From: Asanoa ferruginea
GTDB taxonomy: Bacteria > Actinomycetota > Actinomycetes > Mycobacteriales > Micromonosporaceae
Reading direction: 5' to 3'
Assembly: GCF_003387075.1 (NCBI RefSeq)
Contig: NZ_QUMQ01000001.1
Span: 7,564,001 to 7,628,000, forward strand
Length of the DNA: 64,000 bases
This document shows, one piece after another, positions 1 through 18,268 of the stretch (the first letter of the stretch is position 1; the number at the start of each line of letters is the position of its first letter). The notes below the pieces were generated by a model, which saw only the letters and a list, made by a program, of their open reading frames with translations, made no database searches and was not told where the DNA came from. The translations under genes were made by a program, and so were the position numbers.

Positions 1-2814
1 GACCAGCGCGAGCGCGAACGACCGGCCCAACGCCGCGCTGTGGTAGCTGGAGGTGACGTGACCGAGCATCGGGGCGCCGGCGTCGATGACCAGTTGCGCT
101 CCTTCGGCGAGGACCAGTGACGGGTCCACCGGGAGCAGGCCGACGAGCCGCTTGCGGTCGGCGCGGGCGGTGTCGGGCCGGGTCAGCGAGCGCTGCCCGA
201 CGAAGTGCTTGGCGGTGGACACGGCCCAGCCCAGCCCGGCGTCGTGCGGGGTGACCGTGCCGTCGGTGTCCTGGCCGACGACGATGAAGCCCTTCTCGGC
301 CCGCAGGACGTGCATGGTCTCGGTGCCATAGGGGGTGGCCCCGGCTGCGGCGACGGCGTCCCACAGCGCCTGCCCGTACCAGGCCGGGACGTTGATCTCG
401 TAGCTCAGCTCGCCGGTGAAGCTGATCCGGAACACCCGCGCCGGGATCCCGGCGACGGTCGCGTCGCGGATCGTCAGGAACGGAAACCCTTCGGCCGAGA
501 CGTCCAACGACGGCGCCAGTCGGCTCAGCACCTCGCGCGAGCCCGGGCCGACGACGGCGACGGCCGCCCACTGGTCGGTGACGGAGGTGGCGGTCACCCG
601 CAGGTCGGGCCACTCCGTTTGCAGCCACTCCTCCAGCCAGTCCAGCACGGCCGCGGCGTTCCCGGTGGTGGTGGTCAGGTGGTAGTGGTCGTCGGCGATG
701 CGCGCGGTGACGCCGTCGTCGAAGACCATCCCGTCGGCGTGGCACATCACCCCGTAGCGGCACTGCCCGACGCGCAGCGTCGAGAACCTGTTGGTGTAGA
801 TGCGATCGAGGAACTCGCCGACGTCGGGGCCGCGCAGCTCGATCTTGCCCAGGGTGGACACGTCCATCATCGCGACGCCCTCCCGCGCCGCGCGGCACTC
901 CCGCTCCACCGCCTGGTCCATGTTCTCGCCGGGTCGCGGGTAGTACCACGGCCGCTTCCACTGCCCGACGTCCTCGAAGGCCGCACCCGCGGCCTCGTGC
1001 CTCTCGTGCATCGGCGTCCGCCGCTCGGGGTCGAGCAGGCGCCCGCGGTCGCGACCGGCGAGCAAGGCGAACGAGATGGGTGCGTACGGGGGACGGTACG
1101 TGGTCGTGCCTACGGCTCCGACCGGGAGGCCGAGCAGCCCGGCCAGGACGCCGACTGTGGTCACGCCGGTGGTCCGGCCCTGGTCCGCCGCCGTGCCCGC
1201 CGTGGTGAAGCGCTTGACGTGTTCGCTGGCGCGCATCCCGGCGCCGACCGCTCGGCGCACGTCGCTCAGGGTCGCGTCGCGTTGGAGGTCGACGAAGATC
1301 GTGTCGGCCCGCTCGTCGGCGGGGCCTGTGACCCAGCACGCCGCCGGCGCGCCCGCCCCGGCGACCGAGTCCGTGGCCGGGGGCAGCGGCTCCTCACCGC
1401 TGCCGCCGTGGGTGGCGGCGGCCGCCTGCCAGCCTGCCTCCGCGCCCTCGGCGAGCGCGTCGGCCAGGTCGAAGGTCCCCGCGGCCGCGCCGACACACGC
1501 GATCGCCGGAAGGGGATCGCCGGGCACGAACGCGGCGTGGTCGGGCGACCATCGGGGCCGGCCGCCCGCCTGGCTGTAGAGGTGCACGGCCGGATTCCAG
1601 CCGCCCGACACCGCCAGCAGATCGCACGGAACCCGGCGGGCCTCGCCGGCTCCGTCGAGCGGAGCCACCCACACCGCCGTCAGCACGCCGTCAGCGTCGG
1701 CGTCAGTGCCCACCACGCCGTGGCATGCCGCGACGACGACAGCGCGATCCCGCAGCGCGCGGTGCGCCTGGCCTTCGACGTCACGGCCGGCGCCCCGGTC
1801 CCCCAGCGCGCCGTGCGCCCGGCCTCCACCGCCGTAGCCGGCGGCGTCGACGACGCCGCGCTCCCGCGGCGCGTGGGGCGCCGCGCCCGGGCGGACGTCG
1901 AGCACCGCGGCCAACTCCACGCCCGCGTCCGCCAGGTCGACCGCGGCCCACAGTGCGCCGTCGTGCGTGCCGACCACGACGGCGCGCCGCCCGGGCAGGA
2001 CGCCGTAGCGCCAGGCGTAGCCCGCCGCGGCGGCGGCCAGCATGACGCCGGGGCGGTCGTTGTCGGGGAACAGGATCGGGCGTTCGTGTGCGCCGGTGGC
2101 CAGCACCACCCGCCGGGCCCGGATGTGCCAGAGCCGCTGCCGGGCCACGTGTGTCGGTGCGGCCGGCCCGAGATGCTCGGTGCGGCGTTGCACCGCCACC
2201 AGGAAGGTGCCGTCGTAGGCGCCGGTCACCGCCGTGCGGGTGAGCACCCGCACGTCCGGCAGGCCGGTCAACCGGGCATGCACGTCGGCGACCCAGTCCA
2301 TGGCCGGGCGGCCATCGAGGCGGGCTCGGCCGGCCAGCAGCTCGCCGCCGAGTTCTGCCCTCTCGTCGGCGAGGATGACGCGCGCGCCGGTAGCGGCGGC
2401 GGCGTGCGCCGCGGCCAGCCCGGCCGGGCCCGCGCCGACGACGAGCACGTCGCAGTGCGCCCAGGTCTTGTCGTAGCGGCTGCCGTCCGGCTCGCCGCGC
2501 AGCTCGCCCTTGCCGGCCAGCGACCGCGCGACCAGACCGTCGTAGACCTCGAGCTGGGTGGCCCGCACCATCGGCTCGCCCGGGCCGGAGTCGACCTGGA
2601 CGAACGCGTTGGGCTCCTCGGCGCCGATGCCGTAGGTGCCGCGCGGGCGACCGGTGTAGGGGCCACGCGCGACGATCCGCACCCCGTTGGCGAGCAGCGC
2701 CGAGCTCAGCGTGTCGCCGGGATGCGCGGAATAGGCCCGGCCGTCGAAGTGGAACGTGAGGGTCCGGTTCCGGTCGATCCGGCCGCCGGTGGCGAGGCGG
2801 AACGGCTGGCTCAC
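1..2814 (-). CDS. soxA: Sarcosine oxidase alpha subunit (3' end beyond window)
   Basis: This is the large subunit of heterotetrameric sarcosine oxidase, which oxidises sarcosine to glycine with transfer of the methyl group to tetrahydrofolate. The visible 938 codons start at a GTG that overlaps the soxD stop by 4 bp (GTGA). The N-terminus has a ferredoxin-like segment followed by a Rossmann motif VVGAGPAGLAAA near residue 120. The far end is a GcvT-like aminomethyltransferase domain. Known SoxA proteins are about 960-1000 residues, so only a few tens of residues are missing at the left edge. It is the last visible gene of the minus-strand run soxB-soxD-soxA, the usual gene order; soxG would be expected next, outside the window. 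The long plus-strand frames over this gene are codon-position shadows. Confidence 0.93.
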   Translation of the reverse strand, partial: MSQPFRLATGGRIDRNRTLTFHFDGRAYSAHPGDTLSSALLANGVRIVARGPYTGRPRGTYGIGAEEPNAFVQVDSGPGEPMVRATQLEVYDGLVARSLAGKGELRGEPDGSRYDKTWAHCDVLVVGAGPAGLAAAHAAAATGARVILADERAELGGELLAGRARLDGRPAMDWVADVHARLTGLPDVRVLTRTAVTGAYDGTFLVAVQRRTEHLGPAAPTHVARQRLWHIRARRVVLATGAHERPILFPDNDRPGVMLAAAAAGYAWRYGVLPGRRAVVVGTHDGALWAAVDLADAGVELAAVLDVRPGAAPHAPRERGVVDAAGYGGGGRAHGALGDRGAGRDVEGQAHRALRDRAVVVAACHGVVGTDADADGVLTAVWVAPLDGAGEARRVPCDLLAVSGGWNPAVHLYSQAGGRPRWSPDHAAFVPGDPLPAIACVGAAAGTFDLADALAEGAEAGWQAAAATHGGSGEEPLPPATDSVAGAGAPAACWVTGPADERADTIFVDLQRDATLSDVRRAVGAGMRASEHVKRFTTAGTAADQGRTTGVTTVGVLAGLLGLPVGAVGTTTYRPPYAPISFALLAGRDRGRLLDPERRTPMHERHEAAGAAFEDVGQWKRPWYYPRPGENMDQAVERECRAAREGVAMMDVSTLGKIELRGPDVGEFLDRIYTNRFSTLRVGQCRYGVMCHADGMVFDDGVTARIADDHYHLTTTTGNAAAVLDWLEEWLQTEWPDLRVTATSVTDQWAAVAVVGPGSREVLSRLAPSLDVSAEGFPFLTIRDATVAGIPARVFRISFTGELSYEINVPAWYGQALWDAVAAAGATPYGTETMHVLRAEKGFIVVGQDTDGTVTPHDAGLGWAVSTAKHFVGQRSLTRPDTARADRKRLVGLLPVDPSLVLAEGAQLVIDAGAPMLGHVTSSYHSAALGRSFALALV

Positions 2815-3059
2815 GACGGCGCCCCGAACTCGTAGGTCACGGTGTGGCGGACGGTGTTGCACCACCGCCGGCAGCCCGCCGCATGGAACCAGCGCTCCGC
2901 GAACCAGCCCTTCGGGTTGTCGCGCAGGAACAGGTATCCGGCCCATTCGGCGTCGGACAAGGCCGCCGGGTCGGGCGGGTAGGCCACGTGGGCCTGCCCG
3001 CCGTAGCGGAACTCGGTCTCGTCGCGCGGGCCGCACCAGGGGCACGGAACACTCAGCAT
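2811..3059 (-). CDS. soxD: Sarcosine oxidase delta subunit
   Basis: This 82-residue small subunit of heterotetrameric sarcosine oxidase contains the N-terminal CPWCG motif (Cys6, Cys9) that binds zinc in this family, and the typical W-rich body (EWAGYLFLRDNPKGWF). It lies between soxB (9-bp gap) and soxA (4-bp overlap), which fixes the identity despite its small size. The start is the ATG giving MLSVPCPWCG, which puts the zinc motif at the usual distance from the N-terminus. Confidence 0.93.
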   Translation of the reverse strand: MLSVPCPWCGPRDETEFRYGGQAHVAYPPDPAALSDAEWAGYLFLRDNPKGWFAERWFHAAGCRRWCNTVRHTVTYEFGAPS

Positions 3060-3068
3060 CGCTCCCCC

Positions 3069-4274
3069 TCAGTGCGCGACCGCGGCCGCGCCGTGCTCGT
3101 CGACGAGTGCGCCGGTGGTGAAGCGGTCCAATGTAAACGGTGCGGCGAGCGGATGTGGTCGGGCGTGGGCGATGGTGTCGGCGTAGACCCAGCCCGCACC
3201 GGGGGTGGCCTTGAAGCCACCGGTCCCCCAGCCGCAGTTGACGAACACGTTCTCGACCGGCGTCAGGCCGAGGACCGGTGACGCGTCCGGGGAGACGTCG
3301 ACGATTCCGGCCCAGGTGCGCAGCACGTGTGCCCGGGCGAAGATGGGGAACAGCTCCACGGCGGCGGCCAGCTGGCTTTCGATGACGTGGAACGAGCCGC
3401 GTTGCCCGTAGCCGTTGTAGGCGTCGATGCCGGCGCCCATCACCAGTTCGCCCTTGTGTGCCTGGCTCACGTAGACGTGGATGGCGTTGGACATGACGAC
3501 GGTGTCGAGCACCTGCTCCAGCAACTCGGAGACCAGTGCCTGAAGTGGATGGCTGGCCAGCGGCAGCCGGAATCCGAGTTCCTGCGCCAGCACGGACGTG
3601 TGACCGGCCGCGCACAGCGCGACCCGGCCGGCCTCGATGGTGCCGCGGCTCGTCTCCACCCCGGTCACCCGTGAACCCTCGCGGCGGAAGCCGGTGACCT
3701 CGCAGTTCTGGATCAGGTGGACGCCGAGGCGGTTAGCGGCGCGGGCGTAGGCCCAGGCGACGTGGTCGTGCTTGGCGATGCCGGCGCGCGGCTGGAAGGT
3801 GGCGCCCAGCACGGGATAGCGCAGCTCGGGCGAGGTGTTGATGATCGGCACGAGCTTCTTCACCTCGGCCGGGGTGAGCCACTCGGCATCGATCCCGTTG
3901 AGGCGGTTGGCGTTCACCCGGCGGACGCTCTCCCGCACGTCGGGCAGGCTGTGCGCGAGGTTGAGCACGCCGCGCTGGCTGAACAGGATGTCGTAGTCGA
4001 GCTCGTCGGAGAGCCCCTCCCACAGCTTGAGCGAGTGCTCGTAGATGGCCGCGCTCGCGTCCCACAGATAGTTGGACCGGATGATGGTGGTGTTGCGGGC
4101 CATGTTGCCGCCGGCCAGCCAGCCGCGCTCGAGCACGGCCACGTCGCTGATCCCGTGGTTGCGGGCCAGGTAGTAGGCGGTGGCGAGGCCGTGCCCGCCG
4201 GCGCCGATGACGACGACTTCGTAGCCGCGCTTCGGCTCGGGGTCGGCCCAGAGGAAGTCGGGGTGGGCGGTCAC
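3069..4274 (-). CDS. soxB: Sarcosine oxidase beta subunit
   Basis: This 401-residue flavoprotein is the catalytic subunit of heterotetrameric sarcosine oxidase. It opens with an FAD-binding Rossmann fingerprint ([17 protein letters not shown], residues about 20-36). The motif [11 protein letters not shown] contains His169, at the position where the covalently bound FMN attaches in known SoxB proteins. The C-terminus has the DAO-family segment [19 protein letters not shown]. The gene starts inside the stop of the upstream dimethylglycine oxidase gene (ATGA overlap), so the two sequential demethylases are probably co-translated: dimethylglycine to sarcosine, then sarcosine to glycine. Confidence 0.94.
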
Positions 4275-6658
4275 CCGCGTAGCCGTTCCATGCGCGGGTC
4301 GAAGAGGGGCTCCGCGGTGACGGTGGCCGGTATCCGGCGGTCGAAGTAGCCGATGTCGACGCTCTGGCCGGGTGTCGCCAGCTCCGCCGGCAGCCAGGCG
4401 TACGCGATCCCGGTGCCGACGGTGTAGCCGTAGGCGGCGCTGGTGATGTGCCCGACGCAGTCGTCGCCGGCGTAGACCGGCTCCTTGCCCATGACGATGT
4501 CGGCGAGGGTCAGGCAGGTCAGCCGGCGCGCCGGGTCCTTGCGTGCCAGCAACGCTTCCCGGCCGAGGAAGTCACCCTTGTCGAGCTTGACGGCGAAGCC
4601 CAGGCCGGCCTCGTAGGGATCGTGCTCGTAGGTCATGTCGGTGCCGAACAACCGGTATCCCTTCTCCAACCGCAGGCTGGCGAACGCACCCCGCCCACCG
4701 GCGACGACGCCGAGCGACTGGCCGGCCGACCACAGCGTGTCCCAGAGCTTGAGCCCGAGATCGGCGGTGGTGTAGAGCTCGTAGCCGAGTTCCCCCACAT
4801 AGGACAGCCGCAGCGCGGTGACCGGCACCGTGCCCAGATAGGCGCGCCGCGCCCGGAAGTAGCGGAAGCCCTCGTTGGAGAAGTCGTCGGCGGTCAGCGA
4901 CTGCACGAGGTCGCGGGCCCGCGGCCCCCAGACGCCGACGCAGCAGGTGCCGGCCGTCGTGTCACGAACGGTCACCGATCCGTCGGCGGGCAGGTGCCGG
5001 GCGAACCAGTCGACGTCGAGCGGCCCGTTGATGCCGACCTGGAACTCGCGCGGGCCGAGCCGGGCCACCGTGATGTCGCTGCGGATCCCGCCGTCGACGT
5101 CGAGTAGCAGGCAGTAGGTGACAGTGCCGACGGCGCGGTCGACGTTCCCGGTCGTGAGCCATTGCAGGTAGGCCGCCGCGCCGGGGCCGGTCACCTCGAC
5201 CCGCTTGAGTGTCGTCATGTCGTAGAGGGCCACGGTCTCGCGGGTCGCCAGCGCCTCCGCGCCGACGATCGGCGACCAGTAATGCGCGGCCCAGTCGTTC
5301 GGCGTCGGGATGTCGCGACCGGCCAGCAGCCGGGCGTTGGCGCCGAACCACTGTGGCCGCTCCCAGCCCGCGTATTCCAGGAAGGACGCGTCCAGCTCCC
5401 GCTGCCGGGCGTAGAACGGCGTCGTGCGCAGCGGTCGAGGCTTCTCCATCGGCTGGAGCGGGTGGATGACGTCGTAGACCTCGATGTAGTTCTGGCAGTC
5501 GCGGGCGAGCACGTAGTCGGGCGCGAGTTGGTGTGGCTCGAAGCGGTTGACGTCGCACTCGTGCAGGTCGAACGAGGAGCAGTGCCCGTCGACGAGCCAT
5601 TCGGCGACGGCCCGCGCGACGCCCGCCGAGTGGGTGACCCAGACCGCCTCCGCCAGCCAGAACCCGTCGACCGCGGCCGACGGCCCGAGCAGCGGCATGT
5701 TGTCGGTGGTGAACGAGAACAGCCCGTTCATGCCCTCCTCGACCTTGGCCTCGCGCAGGGCCGGCAGCAGGTCCTGCGCGGCGGCCCAGCCGGGCTCGAA
5801 GTCGACGGCGGTGAACGGCAGCACCGACGGCGTCGGACCGCGGCCGATGTCGTCAGCCGCCACCGGCATCGGGCGGTGGCCGTAATAGCCGACCCCGATC
5901 CGGTCGAACCGCTCGCGCACGTAGAGGTCGGCGTCCTGATGCCGCAGGATCGGCCGGACCGCCTGCTGGTCGGCGAGTGCCCGCAGCGGCCCGGTCCAGC
6001 CGAACTGGTGGGCCAGCGGCGTCAGCGGCAGGTTGACGCCGACCATCCGGGCGATCCGCGGCCCCCAGATTCCGGCGCAGCACACGACGAGGTCGGCGGG
6101 CAGCTCGCCCCGAGACGTCACGACGCCACGGACCCGCTCGCCGGCCACCCGGATGTCGAGCACCTCGTGGTGATCGAGGACCCGGACGCCCCGCTCCCGT
6201 GCCCGGGCGAGCTGCGCCTCGACCGCGCCGACACTGTCGGCCAGCCCGTCGCCCGGCACATGGAGACCACCGAGGACCGGGCCCAGCAGGGAATGGCGGC
6301 GCAGGCACTCGGCGGGATCGAGCACCTGCCCGTCGCCACCCCACGCGGTCAACCAGCCGTGCCGCCGGTGCAGGTCGGCCAGCCGCGCCTCGCTGGTCGC
6401 GACCTCCAGGCTGCCGACGGTCGAGAAGCACCCCAGGCGGGTCAGCTTGTCGACGGTGTATCGGGCGAACCCCGTCATCACTTTCGCGGCGTTGGTCTGG
6501 AACACCAGGCCGGGCGCGTGCGAGCTCGATCCGCCCGGCCGTGGCAACCCACCCTGCTCGACCACCGTGACGTCGACCCAGCCCAGCGCCGACAGCTCGT
6601 CGGCGAGCGCGGCACCGACCACGCCGGCGCCGATGATGACGACCCGCGGCGCTGCCAT
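4271..6658 (-). CDS. Dimethylglycine oxidase-like FAD/GcvT protein
   Basis: This 795-residue protein is built like Arthrobacter dimethylglycine oxidase: an N-terminal FAD domain ([17 protein letters not shown], residues 6-22), then a C-terminal GcvT-type tetrahydrofolate domain from about residue 430. The motif [12 protein letters not shown] has His47 where this family carries the flavinylation histidine. The expected reaction is dimethylglycine to sarcosine, with the methylene group trapped as methylene-tetrahydrofolate. The ATG at 6658 is chosen because it is preceded by AGGGAGGG and gives the flavin motif at the N-terminus; an upstream extension would be low-complexity shadow sequence. It overlaps soxB by 4 bp. 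Dimethylglycine dehydrogenase or sarcosine dehydrogenase activity is the main alternative. Confidence 0.88.
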
Positions 6659-6669
6659 GGGTCCCTCCC

Positions 6670-7626
6670 TCAGTTCTTCAGCCAGGCCTGCCAGACGTCG
6701 CGATTGGCCTCCACCCACTTCTTGGCCGCGTCGTCGTCGGAGAGCTTGTTGACGGCGATGTCGAGGGCGACCGCGTTCTGGTGCTCGTTGGTCCACTGGA
6801 AGTTCTTCACCAGCGCGGCCGCCGGGCTGCCCGAGTCGGCGAACTTCTTGCTCACGATCTTGTCGAGGTCGTAGGGGGCGTAGTCGCAGGCGACCGTCTT
6901 CGGGTCGGCGTCACAACCCGCCGTGTAGGGCGGCAGGTTGACGTGGACCAGCTTCACCTCGTTGAGGAACCACTGCGGCTCGTAGAAGTAGCCGATCATC
7001 CACTGCTTCTGCTGTTCAGCCGTGCGGAACGCCTGGATCAGCGCGGTCTCGCTGCCGGCGTACACCACCTTGAAGTTGAGTTCGAGGTTTTTCACCAGGG
7101 CCTCGTCGTTGGTGACGAACGACGGGTCGCCGAGCAGCAACTGGCCCTTGCCGCCGGACTCGGAGGTCTTGAACTTGTCCGCGTATTTGTTGAGGTTGTT
7201 CCAGTCGGTGATGTCGGGGTATTGCTGCGCCAGCCACGGCGGCACATACCAGCCGATGATGCCCTTGTTGCCGGTCGACCCGTATTCGACGGCCACGCCC
7301 TGCTGCTCGATGTATGTCTTCTTGAGGTCGTCGTGACCCCAGTTTTCCAGGACCACGTCGACCGCGCCGGTGCCGAAGCCCTGCCAGGACACCTCTTCGG
7401 TGAGGTTCTTCTTCTCCACCTTGCAACCGAGCTCGTTGGTGGCGAGGTAGGCGATGACGGCCGCGTCGGCCTGGTAGCCGACCCACGGGTTGACCGCGAT
7501 GTTGACGGTGCCGCAGGCCGCGCGACTAGGCGTCGCCGACCCGGAGTCTTCGATCTTCGAACCGCAGCCGGTCAACGCGAGCGCGCCGACCGTCATCGCC
7601 GCGACGAACCTGCCTATATTTCTCAC
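6670..7626 (-). CDS. Glycine betaine-type ABC transporter substrate-binding lipoprotein
   Basis: This 318-residue lipoprotein has a signal peptide ending in the lipobox LTGC near residue 20. It belongs to the OpuAC/ProX family that binds quaternary amines in an aromatic cage; the mature protein is rich in Trp/Tyr (NPWVGYQ, VLENWGHDD, GWYVPPWL, EPQWFLNE). The GTG start at 7626 follows GGGGGAAGGA and overlaps the permease stop by 4 bp. It sits 11 bp upstream of the dimethylglycine oxidase gene, so uptake and degradation are probably cotranscribed. Glycine betaine is the most likely ligand; carnitine, proline betaine or choline are possible. Confidence 0.88.
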   Translation of the reverse strand: MRNIGRFVAAMTVGALALTGCGSKIEDSGSATPSRAACGTVNIAVNPWVGYQADAAVIAYLATNELGCKVEKKNLTEEVSWQGFGTGAVDVVLENWGHDDLKKTYIEQQGVAVEYGSTGNKGIIGWYVPPWLAQQYPDITDWNNLNKYADKFKTSESGGKGQLLLGDPSFVTNDEALVKNLELNFKVVYAGSETALIQAFRTAEQQKQWMIGYFYEPQWFLNEVKLVHVNLPPYTAGCDADPKTVACDYAPYDLDKIVSKKFADSGSPAAALVKNFQWTNEHQNAVALDIAVNKLSDDDAAKKWVEANRDVWQAWLKN

Positions 7627-9632: not shown

Positions 9633-10693
9633 GGCTCCTCCGCGACGATCACCCGCAGGATCGCCTCGTCGTCGACCATGCCGACCAACTCGCCGTCGTG
9701 GACCACCTTGACCGGCGCGCCCGACGAGAGCACCGCGCGGACGGCGTCGCGGACGATGACACCGGCGCCCAACTCCGGCCCGTCGAGCGGATCGTCGGCG
9801 CGGACCGGGCGCATCACCCAGCGGATGGTCAGCACGTGCGACTTGGGCACGTCGGCGACGAAGTCGCGCACGTAGTCGTCGGCGGGAGCACCGACCACCT
9901 CGTCGGGCCGGCCGATCTGCACCGCCGCGCCGTCGCGCATGATCAGGATGCGGTCACCCAGGCGCAGGGCCTCGTGCAGGTCGTGGGTAATGAAGATCAT
10001 CGTCTTGCCGACCTCGTGGTGCAGCCGGAGGACCTCGTTCTGCATGTCGCGCCGGATGAGCGGGTCGAGGGCGGAGAACGGCTCGTCGAAGAACAGGATC
10101 TGGGGGTCGACGGCGAGCGCCCGGCCCAGGCCCACCCGCTGCTGCATGCCGCCGGAGAGCTGGTCGGGAAACAGGTCGGCGCACCCGCCCAGGCCGACCA
10201 GGTCGAGCACCTCGCCGGCGCGCCGGTAGCGCTCGGTTCGGCCGACGCCGCGGATCTCCAGCCCGTAGGCGACGTTGTCGAGCACCCGCCGGTGCGGCAG
10301 CAACCCGAAGTGCTGGAACACCATCGCGAACCGGTGCCGGCGCAGGTCGCGCAACCGCCGCGGGTCGGCGGCGCGGAGGTCTTCGCCGTCGACGAGCACG
10401 GACCCGGACGTCGGCTCGACGAGCCGGGTCAGGCACCGCACCAGGGTCGACTTGCCCGAGCCGGACAGGCCCATCACCACGAACACCTCGGTGGGCGGCA
10501 CCGTGAACGAGATGTCGCGGACGGCTGCCACGCAACCGGTTCGCGCCATCAAGTCGCCGCGCGACAGGTCGGCGAGCGGAGTGCCGACGACCCGGTCGCT
10601 GCGGGGACCGAACACCTTCCACAGGTCCGTGACGGCCAGCGCCGGCCCGGTGGCAGCCTCCACCCGTTCGGCGCTGATCAAGGGCTCTGGCAT
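9629..10693 (-). CDS. Betaine ABC transporter ATP-binding protein
   Basis: This 354-residue ATPase has a Walker A (GLSGSGKST), the signature [14 protein letters not shown], Walker B with [11 protein letters not shown], and the switch histidine in FITHDLHEA. After the nucleotide-binding domain (about residues 30-270) is a short CBS-like region ([15 protein letters not shown]), as in ProV/OpuAA, where such domains sense ionic strength. It is the first gene of the visible minus-strand transporter-oxidase operon; the 100 bp between it and the methyltransferase gene allows either readthrough or a separate promoter. Confidence 0.9.
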
Positions 10694-10771
10694 GGCTGCC
10701 TCGATGTCTGCCGCAGTCTGGTGTGGTCTGTCCTACCCCGCTGAGTCGTGATATTTCGCGACAGTATCCGC

Positions 10772-10789
10772 ACGGGCGTCGATGCCCGT
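10772..10789 (-). terminator. Weak hairpin downstream of the MttB-type gene
   Basis: ACGGGC and GCCCGT form a 6-bp stem with a 6-nt loop just after the methyltransferase stop codon (minus strand). No U-run follows. It may be a weak terminator or pause site separating the methyltransferase message from the transporter operon. Confidence 0.3.
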
Positions 10790-10795
10790 CAAGGT

Positions 10796-12235
10796 TCAGT
10801 CGCCGAGTTCCTTGCGCCGGCGGACCACGTAGTCGTCGAGCTCCGCGCGGATCGCGTCGTCGAGCGGCGGCTGCTCGTATTCGTCGAGCTGCTTGCGGTA
10901 GATCTCGCCGGCCCGGGCCGCCGCGTCCTGGCCGCCGTTGCGCATCCATCGCTCGTAGTTGGCGGACGAGGACAGCAGCGGTCGGTAGAAGCACGTGCGG
11001 AACCGCTCCATCGTGTGTGCCGCGCCGAGGAAGTGGCCGCCGTGGCCCACCTCTTCGTGCGCGTCGAACGCCAGCGAGGCCTCGTCGATCTCCAGCGGCG
11101 TGAACTCGACCTGCAACATCCGCAGGATCTCGACGTCGACCACGAACTTCTCGTAGGAGGCGACCAGGCCGCCCTCGAGCCAGCCGGCGGCGTGCATGAC
11201 CCAGTTGGTGCCGGCGAGGAATGTCGGCAGCATGGTCATCATCGCCTCGTAGGCCGACTGCGCGTCAGCCGTCTGGCTGGAGGTCAGCCCGCCGCCGGTG
11301 CGGAACGGGAGGCCGTACCGGCGCGCTATCTGGCCCGTGCAGAGCAGACCCACTGCCGACTCGGGCGTGCCGAAGCACGGCGAGCCCGACTGCATGTCGA
11401 TGTTGGACAGGAACGAGCCGAAGATGACTGGCGACCCGGGCCGGACGAGCTGCGACAGCGCGATCCCGGTCAGCGCCTCGGCCATCTGCTGCACCAGCGT
11501 CGCCGGCACCGACACCGGCGACATCGCGCCCATCAGCAGGAACGGCGTGATCACGACGGCCTGGTTGGCGGCGCTGTATTCGAGCTGGGAATCGAGCATC
11601 CGATCGTCCCAGCGCAACGGTGAGTTGCAGTTGATGAGCGAGATCGTCGCGGGGGTACGCTCGATCGCCTCCCGCCCGCCGAACAGGATCTCGGTCATCG
11701 CGATGGTGTCGCGGGCGTTGACCTCGGACACGACGTTGCCCATGTAGATCTTGTCGGTGAGCGTCTGCAACGCGTAGACCATGTCGAGGTGGCGCGAGTC
11801 GAGCGGGGCGTCGTTGGGCTCGCAGATCACGCCGCCCGCGGAGTCGAGTTGCGGGAACCGCTGGGCAAGCTTGGTGAACCGCCGGAAGTCATCGAGCGTC
11901 GCCTCGCGGCGCACGTCGCCGTCGCGGACGAACGGCGGCCCGTAGACCGCGCCGAAGGCCATGTGGTCGCCGCCGATGTGCACGGTGTTGGTCGGATTGC
12001 GGGCCTGCACGTCGAACTCGCGGGGCGCCTTGGCCACCTGTTCGAGCACGAAGTCGGGATCGAAGCGGACCAGGTTGCCCTCGACCGTCTGCCCGGCCGC
12101 GCGGAACAGGTCAAGGGCCCGGTCGGACACGAACTCGACGCCGATCTCGCTGACCAGCCGTCGCCAGCCTCTGTCGAGGATGGCCATCGCGTCCTCGGAC
12201 AGGATCTCGTAGCGCGGCATCGTGTTGACGAACAT
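10796..12235 (-). CDS. MttB-superfamily corrinoid methyltransferase (non-pyrrolysine)
   Basis: This 479-residue protein matches the trimethylamine methyltransferase (MttB) superfamily along its length, with family landmarks such as GGVICEPNDAPLDSRHL, SLINCNSPLRWDDRML and the C-terminal segment EVGHGGHFLGAAHTMERF. The frame runs through without an in-frame amber codon, so it is a non-pyrrolysine member like MtgB, which moves a methyl group from glycine betaine to a corrinoid protein. The neighbouring betaine-type transporter and dimethylglycine oxidase make glycine betaine demethylation to dimethylglycine the best inferred reaction. It is divergent from the IclR gene that probably controls it. 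Other quaternary amines (proline betaine, carnitine) cannot be excluded. Confidence 0.9.
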   Translation of the reverse strand: MFVNTMPRYEILSEDAMAILDRGWRRLVSEIGVEFVSDRALDLFRAAGQTVEGNLVRFDPDFVLEQVAKAPREFDVQARNPTNTVHIGGDHMAFGAVYGPPFVRDGDVRREATLDDFRRFTKLAQRFPQLDSAGGVICEPNDAPLDSRHLDMVYALQTLTDKIYMGNVVSEVNARDTIAMTEILFGGREAIERTPATISLINCNSPLRWDDRMLDSQLEYSAANQAVVITPFLLMGAMSPVSVPATLVQQMAEALTGIALSQLVRPGSPVIFGSFLSNIDMQSGSPCFGTPESAVGLLCTGQIARRYGLPFRTGGGLTSSQTADAQSAYEAMMTMLPTFLAGTNWVMHAAGWLEGGLVASYEKFVVDVEILRMLQVEFTPLEIDEASLAFDAHEEVGHGGHFLGAAHTMERFRTCFYRPLLSSSANYERWMRNGGQDAAARAGEIYRKQLDEYEQPPLDDAIRAELDDYVVRRRKELGD

Positions 12236-12317
12236 CGAAGCCTCCCTTGACGCGATGGGGTCGAGGGGATTTTACTCTCATCAATTGAAACTGTAGTTCT
12301 ACGATGTGGAACTCATT
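12236..12317. promoter_or_regulatory. Divergent promoter/operator region, MttB-type gene and IclR gene
   Basis: The 70-bp divergent gap is clearly more AT-rich than its surroundings (for example TTTTACTCTCATCAATTGAA). An inverted repeat AGTTC (12295-12299) / GAACT (12309-12313) with a 9-nt spacer overlaps the annotated IclR start codon. Such short palindromes are typical IclR-family operators, so autoregulation plus control of the divergent gene is likely. The overlap also makes the alternative GTG start at 12318 plausible. Confidence 0.5.
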
Positions 12318-13088
12318 GTGGCTACCCAGCAGACCGGCACCCAGGCGGTCGACCGCGCCGCCGAGTTGCTGACGCATGTCGTCGAGGCGGCCGGACCGCG
12401 CACGTTCACCTCGCTCGTCGAGCAGACCGGGCTGGCCAAGTCGACCGTCTCCCGGCTGTTGCAGGCGCTCGAACGGCACCGCCTCGTCCAGCGCGACCGC
12501 AGCGGCGTGTTCCGCCCGGGTGCGGTCTTCGCCGTCTACGCGGCCCGGCAGGGCGTCGGCAGCGACCTGGTCGAGCTGACCACGCCGACGCTCGAACGCA
12601 TCGGCGCGCGCACCGGGGAGACGATCAACCTGGCGGTGCCCCGCGGCGACGCCGTCGTCCAGGTCGCGCAGGTCGACAGCGTCCACCTGCTCGGCACCAC
12701 CAACTGGGTCGGGCTGAGCGTGCCCGCGCACTGCTCGGCGCTCGGCAAGGTCTTCTACGCGTTCCGGACCCTCCCCCTGCCGACCGGCACCCTGGAGCGC
12801 CGCACCCCACGCACGATCACCGACCGCACGGACCTGGAGCGCGACCTCGCGACGGTGATCCGGCGCGGCTACGCCATCGCCCGCGAGGAGCTCGAGCCCG
12901 GTCTGGTGGCCGTGGCCAGCCCGGTCCGCGCGCGGGACGGCAGCGTCGTCGCGGCGATCTCCGTCTCCGGCCCCACCGCCCGGATCACCGACCGCCGGGC
13001 CGAGCAGATCGGCGCGCTGCTGGTGACCGAGTCGGCCGCGCTGTCATCGATCCTCGGCCACACCGTACGAACGGAGGGCGCCGCATGA
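12306..13088 (+). CDS. IclR-family transcriptional regulator
   Basis: This regulator of about 260 residues has an N-terminal winged helix (residues about 15-75, with the recognition part GLAKSTVSRLLQALERHRLV) and a C-terminal IclR effector-binding domain containing CSALGKVF and REELEPGLVAVASPV. It lies between the divergent methyltransferase gene and the corrinoid protein gene, so it most likely responds to the methylated amine or a product. The start is either GTG 12306 (no ribosome site, possibly leaderless) or GTG 12318 (GGAAC seven bases upstream). Its stop overlaps the start of a 24-codon reading frame (ATGA). Confidence 0.92.
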   Translation: MELIVATQQTGTQAVDRAAELLTHVVEAAGPRTFTSLVEQTGLAKSTVSRLLQALERHRLVQRDRSGVFRPGAVFAVYAARQGVGSDLVELTTPTLERIGARTGETINLAVPRGDAVVQVAQVDSVHLLGTTNWVGLSVPAHCSALGKVFYAFRTLPLPTGTLERRTPRTITDRTDLERDLATVIRRGYAIAREELEPGLVAVASPVRARDGSVVAAISVSGPTARITDRRAEQIGALLVTESAALSSILGHTVRTEGAA

Positions 13089-13159
13089 GGAAGCTTGCGA
13101 CCGAATCATTTGACTCAGTAGCCAGGGTCATGCCCGCGCGAAGCGCGGTGGGCGCATGA
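13085..13159 (+). CDS. Possible 24-residue linking mini-ORF
   Basis: An ATG overlapping the IclR stop (ATGA) opens a 24-codon frame (MRKLATESFDSVARV...) whose TGA overlaps the ATG of the corrinoid protein gene (again ATGA). The corrinoid protein gene itself has no good Shine-Dalgarno sequence, only GGTGGGCGC, so translational coupling through this frame is plausible. It contains a CCGCGC/GCGCGG hairpin. No homology is recognised and it may be fortuitous. Confidence 0.3.
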   Translation: MRKLATESFDSVARVMPARSAVGA

Positions 13160-13821: not shown

Positions 13822-13834
13822 GAGGTGTAGCGAC

Positions 13835-14689
13835 GTGCACACCGTTGTCCGGTCCGCGGGAAGGACCGTTGTCATCGGCCCGGACCAGCCGTTCTGCGTC
13901 ATCGGCGAACGGCTCAACCCCACGGGCCGCCGCATCTTCCAGGACCAGCTCCGCGCCGGCGACCTGTCCCGCATCGAGGTCGACGTCGCCGAGCAGGTGG
14001 CCGGCGGCGCGATGGTGCTCGACGTCAACATGGGCGTTCCGCTCCTCGACGAGGCCGAACTGCTCGCCAAGGTCGTCCGGATGGTGCAGGGCCTGACCGA
14101 TCTGCCGCTGTGCATCGACTCCTCGGTCGTCGAGGCGCTCGACGCCGGCCTGGCCGCCTATGAGGGCAAGGCCCTGGTCAACTCGGTGACCGCGGAAGAC
14201 GACCGGCTCGCGGCGATCCTGCCGCTGGTCAAGCGCTACGGCGCCGCGGTGATCGCGCTGCCCAACGACGAGGAGGAGATCCCGGAAGACCCGGCCCGCC
14301 GGCTGGAACTGGCCCGCAAGGTCGTCGACGTGGCGACCGGCCGCTACGGCATCCCGATCGAGGACATCGTGATCGACCCGCTGGCCATGCCGGTGGGCGC
14401 CGACACGTCGCTCGTGGCGAAGACGCTCGACACCATCGCGATGATCAAAGACGAGCTCGGGGTGAACATGACGCTGGGCGCGTCCAACGTCTCCTTCGGC
14501 ATGCCGCGCCGGCACGCGCTGGGTGCGGCCTTCCTGCCGATGGCGATGCGCGCCGGGCTGACCAGCGCCATCATGGACGCGCGTACCCCCGAGGTCGTCG
14601 ACGCCGTCAAGGCCGCCGACCTGCTGCTCGGCAACGACGCCTGGGGCGCCACCTGGATCTCCCTGTTCCGGGCCCGGCAGGGCGCATGA
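13835..14689 (+). CDS. Pterin-binding methyltransferase (corrinoid:THF, MtgA-like)
   Basis: This 284-residue TIM-barrel protein belongs to the dihydropteroate-synthase/pterin-binding family, as in AcsE, MtgA and the MetH folate domain. Landmarks are CVIGERLNPTGRR, MVLDVNMGVP, LPLCIDSS, ALVNSVTAED and GASNVSFGMP. The expected role is transfer of the methyl group from the methyl-corrinoid protein to tetrahydrofolate. The GTG start at 13835 is preceded by GGAGG. The 3' end overlaps the activator gene by 4 bp. Confidence 0.9.
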   Translation: MHTVVRSAGRTVVIGPDQPFCVIGERLNPTGRRIFQDQLRAGDLSRIEVDVAEQVAGGAMVLDVNMGVPLLDEAELLAKVVRMVQGLTDLPLCIDSSVVEALDAGLAAYEGKALVNSVTAEDDRLAAILPLVKRYGAAVIALPNDEEEIPEDPARRLELARKVVDVATGRYGIPIEDIVIDPLAMPVGADTSLVAKTLDTIAMIKDELGVNMTLGASNVSFGMPRRHALGAAFLPMAMRAGLTSAIMDARTPEVVDAVKAADLLLGNDAWGATWISLFRARQGA

Positions 14690-16518
14690 CGGACCTGGTC
14701 AGCCACGACGGCCACGGGCGGGTGCGGGTGCATTTCAGCCCCGCGGCCCGGGACATCCGCGTGCCGCCCGGCGTGACCGTCTTCGACGCCGCGAGCTGGA
14801 ACGGCATCGCCATCGACTCGACCTGTGGCGGCCACGGCACGTGCCGCAAATGCCTGGTCCGCATCGACGACGGCACCATTCCGGTGTCCTCACTGGACGT
14901 CCGGGCGTTCGGCGCCGACCAGCTCCGCGAGGGCTGGCGGCTCGCCTGCCGCGCGCACGTCACCGAGAACCTGCGGGTCGAGGTGCCGCCACTGGTCACC
15001 CGGCCGAAGGCGGCGACGGTCGGGGTGGGCCGGCAGGTCATCCTCCGGCCGGCCATCCAGAAGCGCTACCTGGAGCTGACCGAGCCGACTCTGAGCGACC
15101 AGACCCCCGACCTCCAGCGGGTGCTCGGCGCGATCGACGATCTCGAGCCGCGGGTCGACCTCGCGGTGCTCCGCGACCTGGGCCGGACCCTGCGGGTCAG
15201 CGACTACCGGGTGACGGCGGTGATCGTCGACGAGGTCCTGGTCGCGGTCGAAGCCGGCGACACCACCGGCCGCTGCTTCGGCATCGCCTTCGACCTGGGC
15301 ACCACGACCGTCGTCGCCAACCTGCTCGACGTCAGCACCGGCACCCCCGTGGCCGTGCGCTCGGCGCTCAACCGGCAGCAGCCGTTCGGCGGCGATGTGA
15401 TCACCCGGATCAGCGCCACGATGCTCGACCCGGCGGCCCTCGACCGGCTGCGCGCGCTGGCCCACGAGACGCTCGACGAGCTGACCCGCGAGGTGTGCGC
15501 CGCCGGCGAGGTCGCGCCGGACGAGATCTACGAGGTGGCGCTGGCCGGCAACGCCACCATGGTGCACATCGCGCTGGGCATCGACCCGGAGCCGCTGGGC
15601 GTGGCGCCGTTCATCATGTCGACCCGGGCGTTCCCCGAGCTGATGGCCGCCGATCTCGGCGTTCAGGTGCACCCGCGGGCCCGGGCGGTGGTGTTCCCGT
15701 CGCTCGGCGCCTACGTCGGTGGCGACATCGTCGCCGGCCTGCTTGCCTCCGGGATGGACCGCGACCGGCGGATGCGGTTGTTCATCGACATCGGCACCAA
15801 CTGCGAGATCGTGCTGGGCAACGCCGACCGGCTGGTGGCGACCGCCGCGCCGGCCGGACCCGCGTTCGAGGGCGCGTCGATCCGGTGCGGCATGCGCGCC
15901 GCCGACGGCGCGATCGAGGTGGTCCGGATCCGCGACGGCGAGCTGGAACTCGGCGTGATCGGCGACGCGAAGCCGGCCGGGCTGTGCGGTTCCGGCCTCG
16001 TCGACGCCGTCGCGGCGCTCGTCGGCGCCGGGCTCATCGACGCGACCGGCCGGTTCGTGCCCGTCGATGACGCCGCCCGGATCGCACCGACGCTCGCGGC
16101 ACGGTTCGCCACCTGGGACGGCGAGCGGGTCTTCGTCCTGCACGACGACATCGTGCTGTCCCAGCGCGACGTCCGCGCGCTCCAGTTCGCGAAGGCCGCG
16201 ATCGCCACCGGATGGCAGCTGCTGCTGGCCGAGTTGGGGGTCGACGTCGGCGATGTCCAGCAGGTGCTGCTGGCCGGCTCGTTCGGCAGCTACCTGTCAC
16301 CGGCGAGCGCGATCCGGATCGGGCTGGTGCCCAAGCTGCCCGTGCTGCGCGTCGTCAGCGCCGGGAACGTGGCCGGCGAGGGAGCCAAGATGGCGCTGCT
16401 CAGCGTGCGCGAGCGGGCCGGCGCCACGACGTTGCTGGAGGAGGTCGAATATGTGGAGCTCTCCGACCGGTCTGACTTCAACGACCGCTTCGTCGATCTG
16501 CTCGCCTTCCCGCCCTGA
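14686..16518 (+). CDS. RACE-type corrinoid activation protein (2Fe-2S, DUF4445)
   Basis: This 610-residue protein is an ATP-dependent reductive activator of corrinoid proteins. The N-terminus is a plant-type [2Fe-2S] domain with Cys47, Cys53, Cys56 and Cys88 (CGGHGTCRKC...C). The remainder is an ASKHA-like ATPase region of the DUF4445 family (FDLGTTTVVANLL, FIDIGTNCEIVLG, LLAGSFGSYLSPASAIRIG). It would reduce adventitiously formed Co(II) to Co(I). This is a component normally needed in corrinoid methyltransferase systems, and its presence here shows the set is complete. Confidence 0.92.
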   Translation: MTDLVSHDGHGRVRVHFSPAARDIRVPPGVTVFDAASWNGIAIDSTCGGHGTCRKCLVRIDDGTIPVSSLDVRAFGADQLREGWRLACRAHVTENLRVEVPPLVTRPKAATVGVGRQVILRPAIQKRYLELTEPTLSDQTPDLQRVLGAIDDLEPRVDLAVLRDLGRTLRVSDYRVTAVIVDEVLVAVEAGDTTGRCFGIAFDLGTTTVVANLLDVSTGTPVAVRSALNRQQPFGGDVITRISATMLDPAALDRLRALAHETLDELTREVCAAGEVAPDEIYEVALAGNATMVHIALGIDPEPLGVAPFIMSTRAFPELMAADLGVQVHPRARAVVFPSLGAYVGGDIVAGLLASGMDRDRRMRLFIDIGTNCEIVLGNADRLVATAAPAGPAFEGASIRCGMRAADGAIEVVRIRDGELELGVIGDAKPAGLCGSGLVDAVAALVGAGLIDATGRFVPVDDAARIAPTLAARFATWDGERVFVLHDDIVLSQRDVRALQFAKAAIATGWQLLLAELGVDVGDVQQVLLAGSFGSYLSPASAIRIGLVPKLPVLRVVSAGNVAGEGAKMALLSVRERAGATTLLEEVEYVELSDRSDFNDRFVDLLAFPP

Positions 16519-17113
16519 GCCCCGCACGGCGGTCATCGCCTGCGGTGCCCTCGCCGCCGACGTCGACCGGGTCGCCACCTCGCGCCGCTGGCCGGTGGAC
16601 GTGCATCCGCTGCCGCCCCTGTTGCACAACCGGCCGGAGCGGATCGCCCCGGCCGTGGCCGACCTCGCCACCACGGTGCGCGGCCGCTACCCCACCGTGG
16701 CCGTCGCCTACGCCGACTGCGGCACCTACGGCGCCCTCGACGAGGTCTGCGGCCGGCTCGGGCTGCGCCGGCTCGGCGGCGCGCACTGCTACGACGTGCT
16801 GGCCGGCGCGGACCGCCTGCGGGCGATGCTGCGTGACGAGCCCGGCACCTATGTGCTGACCGACTTTCTGGTCCGTTCGTTCGAGCGGACGGTCGTCGCG
16901 GAGCTGGGCCTCGATCGCTGGCCCGAGCTGCGCGACGACTATTTCAAGCACTACCGGCGCGCGGTCTGGCTGGCCCAACGGCCGACCGCGCGGCTGTCGG
17001 CGCTGGCGCAGGCCGCCGCCGACACGCTCGGCCTGCCACTCACGGTCCACCACGTCGGCGACGCCGGCCTGGAGCGCGAACTGGCAGCGCTGATCTGCAC
17101 GCGCAGCGAATGA
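16451..17113 (+). CDS. DUF1638 protein
   Basis: This protein of about 220 residues matches the DUF1638 pattern, with conserved cysteines in AVIACGALA, VAYADCGTYG and GAHCYDVLAG. Its biochemical role is unknown; members are commonly seen near corrinoid-dependent methyltransferases. The ATG at 16451 is chosen because GGAGGAGG lies six bases upstream, although this places the first 68 bp inside the activator gene in another frame. No other standard start lies close to the conserved core. It probably assists the methyl-transfer module. Confidence 0.8.
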   Translation: MWSSPTGLTSTTASSICSPSRPEPRTAVIACGALAADVDRVATSRRWPVDVHPLPPLLHNRPERIAPAVADLATTVRGRYPTVAVAYADCGTYGALDEVCGRLGLRRLGGAHCYDVLAGADRLRAMLRDEPGTYVLTDFLVRSFERTVVAELGLDRWPELRDDYFKHYRRAVWLAQRPTARLSALAQAAADTLGLPLTVHHVGDAGLERELAALICTRSE

Positions 17114-18262: not shown

Positions 18263-18268
18263 CCACCG

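What the first reader, a model, noticed from the sequence alone, without database searches (positions are those of the whole stretch)
1..17113. Complete corrinoid/folate route for betaine demethylation next to oxidative demethylases
The locus joins an MttB-type methyltransferase, corrinoid protein, pterin methyltransferase and RACE activator, a set best known from anaerobes, with two oxygen-dependent demethylases (dimethylglycine oxidase and sarcosine oxidase) and a betaine-type importer. In aerobes the first betaine methyl is usually removed by BHMT or by a Rieske monooxygenase. Here a corrinoid system appears to take that step, with all three methyls going to the folate pool. Gene content is seen; the pathway and substrate are inferred.
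Basis: partly seen in the sequence, partly recalled or inferred. Interest (0 to 1): 0.8.

Follow-up and report, generated by a model that had tools for sequence, protein, structure and literature searches.

The report
Vitamin B12 route for betaine breakdown
This actinobacterium carries a linked set of genes that would take the first methyl group off glycine betaine with a vitamin B12 protein and the other two with oxygen-using enzymes; a B12 route of this kind has so far been worked out mainly in anaerobes and marine bacteria.

Summary
The gene set is real and correctly placed. In a single-contig 9.07 Mb Asanoa-like genome, two divergent operons hold MttB, a betaine/choline-type importer, dimethylglycine oxidase and SoxBDA on one strand, and IclR, corrinoid protein, pterin methyltransferase, RACE and DUF1638 on the other. 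Beyond the window edge the first operon continues with SoxG, choline dehydrogenase and a divergent methylene-THF reductase. No stand-alone PF02574 methyltransferase (BHMT type) and no convincing GbcA were found. The cassette is conserved across Actinomycetota (MtgC 74 of 74, RACE 64 of 64 testable loci), often with BetA/BetB, PurU and an importer, and shares a palindromic operator. Glycine betaine as substrate is well supported by context and four conserved predicted pocket residues; no activity was tested. Corrinoid betaine demethylation in an aerobe is already published (Ruegeria pomeroyi, PNAS 2025), where MtgC/MtgD also serve methionine synthesis. Here two complete MetH genes exist, so the cassette looks dedicated to catabolism: a new variant of a known kind. 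A lead: small planktonic-type actinobacterial genomes (perhaps acI) carry the same cassette, 5 of 6 checked without MetH but with a stand-alone MtgE-like protein; there it may double as methionine synthase.

The parts
1..2814 (-). SoxA, sarcosine oxidase alpha subunit (cut; gene ends 120 bases beyond the window start)
   Evidence: TIGR01372 1114 bits, GCV_T, SO_alpha_A3, Fer2_4; full frame, start read from it
2811..3059 (-). SoxD, sarcosine oxidase delta subunit
   Evidence: PF04267 E 4.9e-35; start read
3069..4274 (-). SoxB, sarcosine oxidase beta subunit
   Evidence: TIGR01373 622 bits, cut-off 529
4271..6658 (-). dimethylglycine oxidase (FAD domain plus folate-binding GCV_T domain)
   Evidence: 1PJ5 950 bits over full length; DAO, FAO_M, GCV_T, GCV_T_C
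6670..7626 (-). OpuAC-type substrate-binding lipoprotein (betaine or choline)
   Evidence: PF04069 E 6.4e-39; TIGR03414 choline binder 61 bits, cut-off 379; weak to PDB betaine binders 4XZ6, 7YLE
7623..9632 (-). tandem permease (two BPD_transp_1 stretches)
   Evidence: PF00528 two stretches; TIGR03416 choline permease 385 bits, cut-off 363, summed over two stretches; ProW model 385 bits, cut-off 439
9629..10693 (-). ProV-type ATPase
   Evidence: TIGR01186 334 bits, cut-off 327
10796..12235 (-). MttB-superfamily methyltransferase without pyrrolysine (MtgB role), first gene of the leftward operon
   Evidence: PF06253 637 bits; 41% identity to DhMtgB 9YCE and 46% to 4YYC
12296..12312 (.). palindromic operator GTTCTACGATGTGGAAC in the divergent promoter (binding by IclR inferred)
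   Evidence: a 19-base form is matched with at most 6 mismatches in 74 of 77 related loci against 0.4% of shuffles
12318..13088 (+). IclR-family regulator (start moved to GTG 12318, since the palindrome covers the upstream start at 12306)
   Evidence: PF01614, PF09339
13156..13821 (+). corrinoid protein MtgC
   Evidence: PF02310, PF02607; NF047996 204 bits under a cut-off of 370; DVHDIG motif
13835..14689 (+). methylcorrinoid:tetrahydrofolate methyltransferase (MtgA/MtgD role)
   Evidence: NF005719 303 bits, cut-off 259; 2YCK 144 bits; PF00809
14686..16518 (+). RACE/RACo-type reductive activator, cysteines 47, 53, 56 and 88 of the [2Fe-2S] domain
   Evidence: Fer2 and RACo domains; 3ZYY 345 bits; cysteines
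16451..17113 (+). DUF1638 protein (ATG 16451 behind GGAGGAGG; overlaps the end of RACE)
   Evidence: PF07796 69 bits, cut-off 27; start

Best explanation
The locus encodes choline and glycine betaine catabolism in an actinobacterium that, by its oxidases and its genus (recalled), is an aerobe. Betaine or choline is imported, and choline is oxidised by BetA. MttB (MtgB role) moves one methyl from betaine to Co(I)-MtgC; the pterin methyltransferase passes it to THF; the MTHFR-like enzyme oxidises 5-methyl-THF to methylene-THF; RACE (perhaps with DUF1638) rescues inactive Co(II)-MtgC, which should matter in an oxygen-exposed cell. Dimethylglycine oxidase and sarcosine oxidase remove the other two methyls with O2, each as methylene-THF, leaving glycine. 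An IclR regulator acting on one operator between the two operons switches both. Shown here: gene content, order, conservation, motifs, no stand-alone PF02574 BHMT and no good GbcA in the genome. Inferred: substrate, direction, regulation, dedication to catabolism.
For: Families. Operon extension with SoxG, BetA (TIGR01810 823 bits, cut-off 732) and MTHFR-like gene. No stand-alone PF02574, no good GbcA, one MttB in the genome. Conservation in the best 80 of 234 relatives, n being loci with enough flank and a gene counted anywhere in the locus: IclR 75 of 76, MtgC 74 of 74, pterin methyltransferase 71 of 72, RACE 64 of 64, DUF1638 64 of 64, MTHFR-like 48 of 58, BetA 41 of 62, BetB 40 of 62, PurU 40 of 62, ProV-type ATPase 40 of 62, at least one of BetA, BetB, DMGO, DMGDH-like, SoxB or that ATPase 49 of 62. 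MTHFR-like gene: profile of 5 homologues hits SYK-6 MTHFR 7XG9, E 1.3e-36; fold hit to 7XLF, its CH3-THF complex, E 1.2e-10. Predicted betaine-pocket residues Y94, N199, R309, H345 of DhMtgB (PMC6855144, passages) are kept as Y98, N202, R312, H348 in 98 of 99 ORFs of at least 65% identity, window included. Shared palindrome. Cobalamin synthesis marker CobN present. Precedent in an aerobe: PMC12478193.
Against: No activity or expression data. F353 of DhMtgB is a glycine here; identity to DhMtgB is 41%. The importer may be for choline rather than betaine: the permease passes the choline model's cut-off (summed over two stretches) and not ProW's, and the binding protein matches all known binders weakly. 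13 of 62 testable loci show none of the choline/betaine markers. The sample is uneven: 38 of the 80 loci are titled Nocardioides. DMGO and SoxB were found in only 4 of 62 loci, three of them Asanoa. The Asanoa MTHFR-like protein alone has no Pfam or NCBIfam hit and its model is of moderate quality (pLDDT 71). BetB was not looked for in the window's own genome. MtgC is below the curated MtgC cut-offs. Paralogues that lack Y98 and H348 can lie near the cassette (L018, L071), so the MtgC of a locus may serve more than one substrate.
Confidence: 0.83

Rival explanations
1. MttB here acts on another quaternary amine (for example a different betaine), and DMGO, Sox and the importer serve dimethylglycine or betaine made by some other step.
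For: MttB homologues have several known substrates; E. limosum encodes 42 non-pyrrolysine ones (PMC12155760, passages). F353 of DhMtgB is not kept. 13 of 62 loci have no choline/betaine marker. Second MttB types with a changed pocket occur one gene away from the cassette MttB in L018 and 7.5 kb away in L071. The importer is not assignable to one substrate.
Against: BetA and BetB in about two thirds of testable loci, and BetB in 17 of 17 further cassette regions, in families with different downstream enzymes; the window's own operon holds BetA. The cassette MttB itself keeps the four residues in 98 of 99 ORFs. No other enzyme for the betaine step found in this genome.
Confidence: 0.11
2. The cassette is mainly a biosynthetic methyl donor or methionine-synthase module, as MtgC/MtgD partly are in Ruegeria, and betaine use is secondary.
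For: [quoted passage not shown] pomeroyi (PMC12478193). Of six f40 genomes with the cassette, five have no MetH-length PF02574 frame, only stand-alone ones of about 300 aa (three stand-alone ones scanned).
Against: The window's own genome has two complete MetH proteins, no stand-alone PF02574 and three PF01717 (MetE-type) matches. Co-location with MTHFR, PurU, formate-THF ligase and DMGO points to C1 dissimilation.
Confidence: 0.05
3. The lone Rieske protein at G000:C1 1.717 Mb removes the first methyl, and the corrinoid set is redundant.
For: Its best NCBIfam match is GbcA; its best PDB matches are 3VCA and 4QUP, the latter deposited as a monooxygenase/demethylase. N. limicola carries GbcA/GbcB-like genes in the same locus as its corrinoid cassette, so both routes may coexist.
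Against: 160 bits against a cut-off of 670, and only residues 20-216 match; the N. limicola protein scores 442 over its length. I recognised no reductase among the called neighbours, which were read but not scanned.
Confidence: 0.04

Closest known systems
MtgBCD/MtgE of Ruegeria pomeroyi DSS-3 and other aerobic marine bacteria (Mausz et al. 2025, PMC12478193; read: outline, introduction, Results part 1, section 7, Discussion, passages)
   Same: MttB-type MtgB, cobalamin protein MtgC, pterin methyltransferase, RACE (RamA), DUF1638, extra MetF, removal of the next two methyls, aerobic host
   Different: In Ruegeria the genes are scattered, MtgC/MtgD also serve methionine synthesis with MtgE, and the importer is OpuD; in other Proteobacteria that paper reports clustering. 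In Asanoa the set is one divergent locus with an ABC importer, DMGO and Sox, and two complete MetH proteins. The passages I searched name Actinomycetota once, as 5% of mtgC reads.
MtgB/MtgC/MtgA of Desulfitobacterium hafniense (Ticak et al. 2014, not opened; as described in PMC6855144 and PMC12478193)
   Same: Same roles and chemistry; predicted pocket residues Y94, N199, R309, H345 conserved
   Different: 41% identity to DhMtgB; separate from the actinobacterial clade in a 24-row tree; an anaerobe
Corrinoid cassette on Paracoccus methylovorus plasmid p1 (NZ_CP070369.1)
   Same: MttB, B12-binding protein, DUF1638, MTHFR, methyl-THF:cobalamin methyltransferase and ASKHA (RACE) protein in one divergent locus
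   Different: MTHFR with a separate C-terminal-domain gene (MetV type); no IclR, DMGO or Sox annotated in the 9 kb flanks; MttB of the 4YYC type (81% to 4YYC, 48% to the window protein)
Arthrobacter globiformis dimethylglycine oxidase (1PJ5; organism recalled) and heterotetrameric sarcosine oxidase
   Same: DMGO match over full length; SoxA, B, G, D all present
   Different: Here in one operon with a corrinoid methyltransferase
Sphingobium SYK-6 methylene-THF reductase (7XG9/7XLF)
   Same: Best sequence-profile and fold match of the MTHFR-like gene; recalled, from no call, to oxidise methyl-THF from O-demethylation of lignin aromatics
   Different: About 25% identity; here tied to betaine genes

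Membership tests
MtgB-type glycine betaine:corrinoid methyltransferase | MttB superfamily protein without a pyrrolysine (UAG) codon | tested here: met
   One open frame of 479 aa, PF06253 637 bits, no internal stop
MtgB-type glycine betaine:corrinoid methyltransferase | Predicted betaine pocket of DhMtgB (Y94, N199, R309, H345; F/Y353) | tested here: inconclusive
   Four of five kept; F353 is Gly356. The residues come from docking, not mutants (PMC6855144, passages)
MtgB-type glycine betaine:corrinoid methyltransferase | Belongs to the betaine clade of DhMtgB and MV8460 | tested here: inconclusive
   41% identity to DhMtgB, against 65% between DhMtgB and MV8460 (PMC6855144); actinobacterial rows form their own clade (100/99), but DhMtgB was the only clade member among the 24 rows
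MtgB-type glycine betaine:corrinoid methyltransferase | Demethylates betaine in vitro | not testable with these tools
   Needs purified proteins
Corrinoid methyltransferase system (MT1, corrinoid protein, MT2, activator) | All four parts in one locus | tested here: met
Corrinoid methyltransferase system (MT1, corrinoid protein, MT2, activator) | DxHxxG cobalamin motif and CX5CX2C...C [2Fe-2S] motif of RACE (motifs recalled) | tested here: met
   DVHDIG at residue 102; C47, C53, C56, C88
Dual-function MtgBCDE (betaine plus methionine) | Stand-alone MtgE, usually with MetH absent | tested here: not met
   Window's genome: PF02574 only in two complete MetH proteins
Dimethylglycine oxidase | DAO + FAO_M + GCV_T domains, full-length match to 1PJ5 | tested here: met
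Heterotetrameric sarcosine oxidase | Alpha, beta, gamma, delta subunits | tested here: met
   SoxA, SoxB, SoxD in the window; SoxG in L095 with PF04268 50 bits over a cut-off of 21, though TIGR01375 84 bits is under its 144 cut-off
GbcA/GbcB betaine monooxygenase | Full-length GbcA match over the curated cut-off | tested here: not met
   Only PF00848 protein of the genome: 160 bits, cut-off 670
Methylene-THF reductase | MTHFR fold and sequence kinship | tested here: met
   Profile of 5 homologues hits 7XG9 E 1.3e-36; Foldseek 7XLF E 1.2e-10 on a pLDDT 71 model; the Asanoa protein alone has no Pfam hit, a homologue (L021) hits PF02219 at 5.4e-8

The most novel reading that the evidence does not exclude
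The actinobacterial cassette is the terrestrial and freshwater counterpart of the marine MtgBCD route. In streamlined planktonic actinobacteria (probably acI/Nanopelagicales, among the commonest freshwater bacteria) it serves both betaine demethylation and methionine synthesis, because MetH is replaced by a stand-alone MtgE-like protein fed by the cassette's MtgC and pterin methyltransferase, and it ties these cells, which lack cobalamin synthesis, to outside B12. In large-genome relatives such as Asanoa, which keep MetH, the same cassette is freed for catabolism alone.
Probability: 0.35. Interest if true: 0.72.

Novelty: new variant of a known kind. Interest (0 to 1): 0.52.

Why it matters
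It indicates that corrinoid betaine demethylation, known from anaerobes and in 2025 shown in marine Proteobacteria, is a conserved, single-locus pathway in Actinomycetota, here with choline oxidation, import, all three demethylations and methyl-THF oxidation side by side. It supplies testable genes for betaine turnover outside the sea, possibly in lakes, and a natural pair (with and without MetH) for asking how betaine catabolism and methionine synthesis came to share a cobalamin protein.

Tried and rejected
Rejected: pyrrolysine-type trimethylamine methyltransferase (no in-frame stop in the 479-aa frame; TIGR02369 281 bits under 525). Rejected: a PF02574-type BHMT as the first step. Rejected: GbcA as the first step. 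Rejected: control by a known riboswitch; no Rfam family reaches its gathering score in the 64 kb window. Left open: horizontal transfer of the cassette; MttB matches 4 of 298 genomes sampled from the order and 41 of 394 from the class, own included in both, and the 41 hold some distant matches only, but no gene-versus-species tree was made. PF02219 finds one MetF in the genome, far from the locus, and misses the MTHFR-like gene of the operon, which is therefore a second, divergent one. Papers that searches listed but that I did not open are not used as evidence. Literature searches that gave no description of this system in Actinomycetota: (listings only; only open-licence PMC papers are held; one search listed 15 of 827).

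Limits of counts: the 80 loci are the best 80 of 234; 38 of them are titled Nocardioides. In one search each n holds only loci with enough flank on one side, a gene was counted anywhere in the locus, and identity thresholds were set by me; the 10 of 58 loci without an MTHFR-like gene include the three Asanoa, where, to judge from the window's own genome, it lies past the fetched flank at the other end. In one search three of 80 loci were dropped for short flank, the controls were single-base shuffles, and the motif was read from five aligned sequences: the window, not itself scored, and four of the 77 loci. The 17 regions were chosen by me from the matches, and some are cut by contig ends.


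Full report
What is there. The window lies in one contig of 9,071,909 bases. By MttB the nearest named relatives are Asanoa iriomotensis, A. hainanensis and A. ishikariensis, 93 to 96% identical; the other proteins of the locus are 83 to 97% identical there, in the same order. The taxonomy tool places Asanoa in Micromonosporaceae. Two divergent gene sets start from a gap of 82 bases. Leftward: MttB, ProV-type ATPase, tandem permease, binding protein, dimethylglycine oxidase, SoxB, SoxD, SoxA. Rightward: IclR, corrinoid protein, pterin methyltransferase, RACE, DUF1638. Neighbours overlap or lie within 15 bases, except for 102 bases behind MttB and 67 behind IclR.

Outside the window. Reading on into the genome the same strand continues with SoxG, a choline dehydrogenase (TIGR01810, 823 bits over a cut-off of 732) and a 284-aa protein without Pfam or NCBIfam match. 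A profile of five homologues of the last one hits Sphingobium SYK-6 methylene-THF reductase 7XG9 at E 1.3e-36, and its AlphaFold model, of moderate confidence (pLDDT 71), finds 7XLF, the methyl-THF complex of the same enzyme, first (E 1.2e-10). I take it as a divergent MTHFR that oxidises methyl-THF; this direction is inferred.

Does anything else do the first step? PF06253 finds one protein in the genome. PF02574 finds two places, both in complete MetH proteins (TIGR02082 1547 and 1408 bits, cut-off 1011), so no stand-alone betaine:homocysteine methyltransferase of that family. PF00848 finds one Rieske protein whose GbcA score is 160 against a cut-off of 670, over its N-terminal half only. 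CobN of cobalamin synthesis is present. So the corrinoid set is the only good candidate that I found, which is an argument by absence.

Conservation. A scan of named bacterial genomes gave 234 relatives, of which the best 80 were kept. With n limited to loci whose flank reaches far enough, the cassette is nearly invariant: IclR 75 of 76, MtgC 74 of 74, pterin methyltransferase 71 of 72, RACE 64 of 64, DUF1638 64 of 64. Counted anywhere in the locus, an MTHFR-like gene is in 48 of 58 loci with at least 8 kb on the cassette side. Of 62 loci with at least 9 kb on the MttB side, BetA is in 41, BetB in 40, PurU in 40, a ProV-type ATPase in 40, formate-THF ligase in 21, a dimethylglycine-dehydrogenase-like protein in 13, EtfB in 4, DMGO in 4 and SoxB in 4; 49 have at least one of the choline, betaine or dimethylglycine markers and 13 have none. 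Hosts include Nocardioides (38 of the 80 titles), Kineosporia, Planobispora, Planomonospora, Pseudonocardia, Mumia, Jatrophihabitans and MAGs labelled Thermoleophilia and Acidimicrobiaceae. The corrinoid part is thus the fixed one, and the second demethylation varies between an oxidase and a protein that in L010, L013 and L031 is followed by EtfB and EtfA genes. In Nocardioides limicola GbcA- and GbcB-like genes (442 and 349 bits, below their cut-offs of 670 and 500) lie in the same locus (1 of 58 testable loci).

Substrate. Besides context, the four residues predicted by docking to bind betaine in DhMtgB and its archaeal homologue (Y94, N199, R309, H345; PMC6855144, passages) align with Y98, N202, R312 and H348; F353 aligns with a glycine. 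Of 103 MttB-type ORFs aligned from the loci, 99 are at least 65% identical to the window protein (itself included) and 98 of these keep all four; the exception, Q98 and Q348, is a second MttB one gene away from the cassette MttB in the Thermoleophilia locus L018. Of four more distant paralogues (40 to 58%), all lack Y98 and one, 7.5 kb from the cassette MttB in L071, also lacks H348. So changed pockets do occur near the cassette, which speaks for added substrates there. In a 24-row tree the actinobacterial proteins form their own clade (100/99); identity is 41% to DhMtgB and 46% to 4YYC of the rhizobial and Paracoccus type. I call it MtgB-like in role; membership of the DhMtgB clade is not shown. 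The importer could carry choline as well as betaine: its permease passes the choline model (385 bits, cut-off 363, two stretches summed) and not ProW's, and the binding protein is a weak match to all.

Regulation. The gap between MttB and IclR holds a palindrome. A 19-base motif read from the Asanoa group is found with at most 6 mismatches in 74 of 77 loci against 0.4% of 1540 shuffles; in the window the core is GTTCTACGATGTGGAAC at 12296-12312, the only site with no mismatch. That it is the IclR operator is inferred. The ORF start of IclR at 12306 lies inside it; GTG 12318 is the better start.

How it most likely works. Choline is oxidised by BetA, or betaine is imported. MttB methylates Co(I)-MtgC, the pterin enzyme makes 5-methyl-THF, the MTHFR-like enzyme makes methylene-THF. 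Dimethylglycine oxidase and sarcosine oxidase then each give methylene-THF and use O2. RACE restores Co(I). The three methyls do reach folate, but the first arrives more reduced than the other two. The steps are assigned from the families; none was assayed.

Comparison with the known. Mausz et al. 2025 (PMC12478193; I read the outline, introduction, Results part 1, section 7, the Discussion and passages) showed by proteomics and mutants that R. pomeroyi, an aerobe, needs MtgC and MtgD for betaine and for methionine, that MtgB-type proteins, RamA, DUF1638 and MetF2 rise on betaine, and that in several Proteobacteria these genes are clustered with later demethylation steps; about 70% (108 of 156) of genomes with MtgBCD lacked MetH. 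Actinomycetota appear there as 5% of mtgC reads. Paracoccus methylovorus carries a comparable cassette on a plasmid. The kind is therefore known; what differs here is the phylum, the single locus from choline to glycine, the pairing with O2-dependent DMGO, and two complete MetH proteins, which should make the cassette dispensable for methionine. My paper searches found no description in Actinomycetota, within a library that lacks most subscription journals.

A wider lead. In 394 genomes drawn from the class, 41 have a match, own included. Thirteen of the 41 belong to one family (f40) of small genomes, 1.0 to 2.2 Mb among those listed; in a sample of 121 of that family 22 match, two of them by fragments. 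In all six f40 regions that I read, the cassette is complete and lies with BetA, BetB and the importer, with MetV+MetF in place of the single MTHFR-like gene; over the 17 cassette regions read, BetB and the ProV-type ATPase are in 17 of 17, BetA in 14 of 17 and MetV in 15 of 17, some regions being cut by contig ends. Of six f40 genomes five have no MetH-length PF02574 frame, only stand-alone ones of about 300 aa; the sixth, G536, has both. Stand-alone proteins of G394, G521 and G536 match NCBI's betaine-homocysteine methyltransferase model best (277 to 282 bits, cut-off 338); Mausz et al. argue that such proteins of S. meliloti and Ruegeria are MtgE. PF01717 is absent from ten f40 genomes tested, four of which lack the cassette. 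Rhodopsin is found in 5 of 6 and CobN in none of the 6. Published work predicts betaine use and B12 auxotrophy for clade acI-B and finds no cobalamin pathway in four acI strains (PMC5574706 and PMC5301498, passages). Against a tight link: the stand-alone gene is 20 to 25 kb from MttB in G394, G475 and G571 but about 130 kb away in G521, and f40 genomes without the cassette were not checked for MetH, which the novel case needs.

Verdict. The most interesting open point is whether planktonic relatives use the same cassette for methionine too.

Noticed in passing
window 17132-20975: An ABC importer (binding protein, permeases, ATPase) starts 18 bases after the DUF1638 gene on the same strand; its first two genes were found in only three of the 80 loci, the Asanoa. 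Binding protein and ATPase lean to 2-aminoethylphosphonate models, below cut-off (45 of 310 and 387 of 458 bits).
   Followed up: partly
window about 1770-1895: SoxA carries an in-frame, low-complexity stretch of about 35 to 40 residues that the three other Asanoa lack; real insertion or local assembly artefact not decided.
   Followed up: partly
L012 (G134:C6:44000-60346), same contig as L071: A second MttB type (58% identity, Y98N and H348Q) followed by a carbon-nitrogen hydrolase, SoxB-, SoxD- and SoxA-like genes, formate-THF ligase, cyclodeaminase and a histidine-ammonia-lyase-like gene; the substrate may be a trimethylated amino acid such as histidine betaine (guess).
   Followed up: partly
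L018 11678-13531 (-): A second MttB-type protein (66% identity, Q98 and Q348) one gene away from the cassette MttB in a Thermoleophilia MAG.
   Followed up: partly
L031 (Nocardioides limicola) 2162-4740: GbcA- and GbcB-like genes lie in the same locus as the corrinoid cassette, so Rieske and corrinoid routes for the same step may share one locus.
   Followed up: partly
L132, L133, L134: MttB paralogues of 40 to 43% identity in genomes that also have the cassette; two of the three lie next to a DMGO-like gene of 30 to 31% identity.
   Followed up: no
L018, L064, L069, L115-L125, L128-L131: A MetV+MetF gene pair inside the cassette instead of the single divergent MTHFR-like gene: two different MTHFR types for methyl-THF oxidation in one cassette.
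   Followed up: partly
window 43879-43895: A second palindromic near-match to the operator (one mismatch on each strand), far from the cassette.
   Followed up: no
G394, G475, G521, G571, G619 (L142-L146): Stand-alone MtgE-like homocysteine methyltransferase frames in small genomes that carry the cassette and have no MetH-length PF02574 frame.
   Followed up: partly
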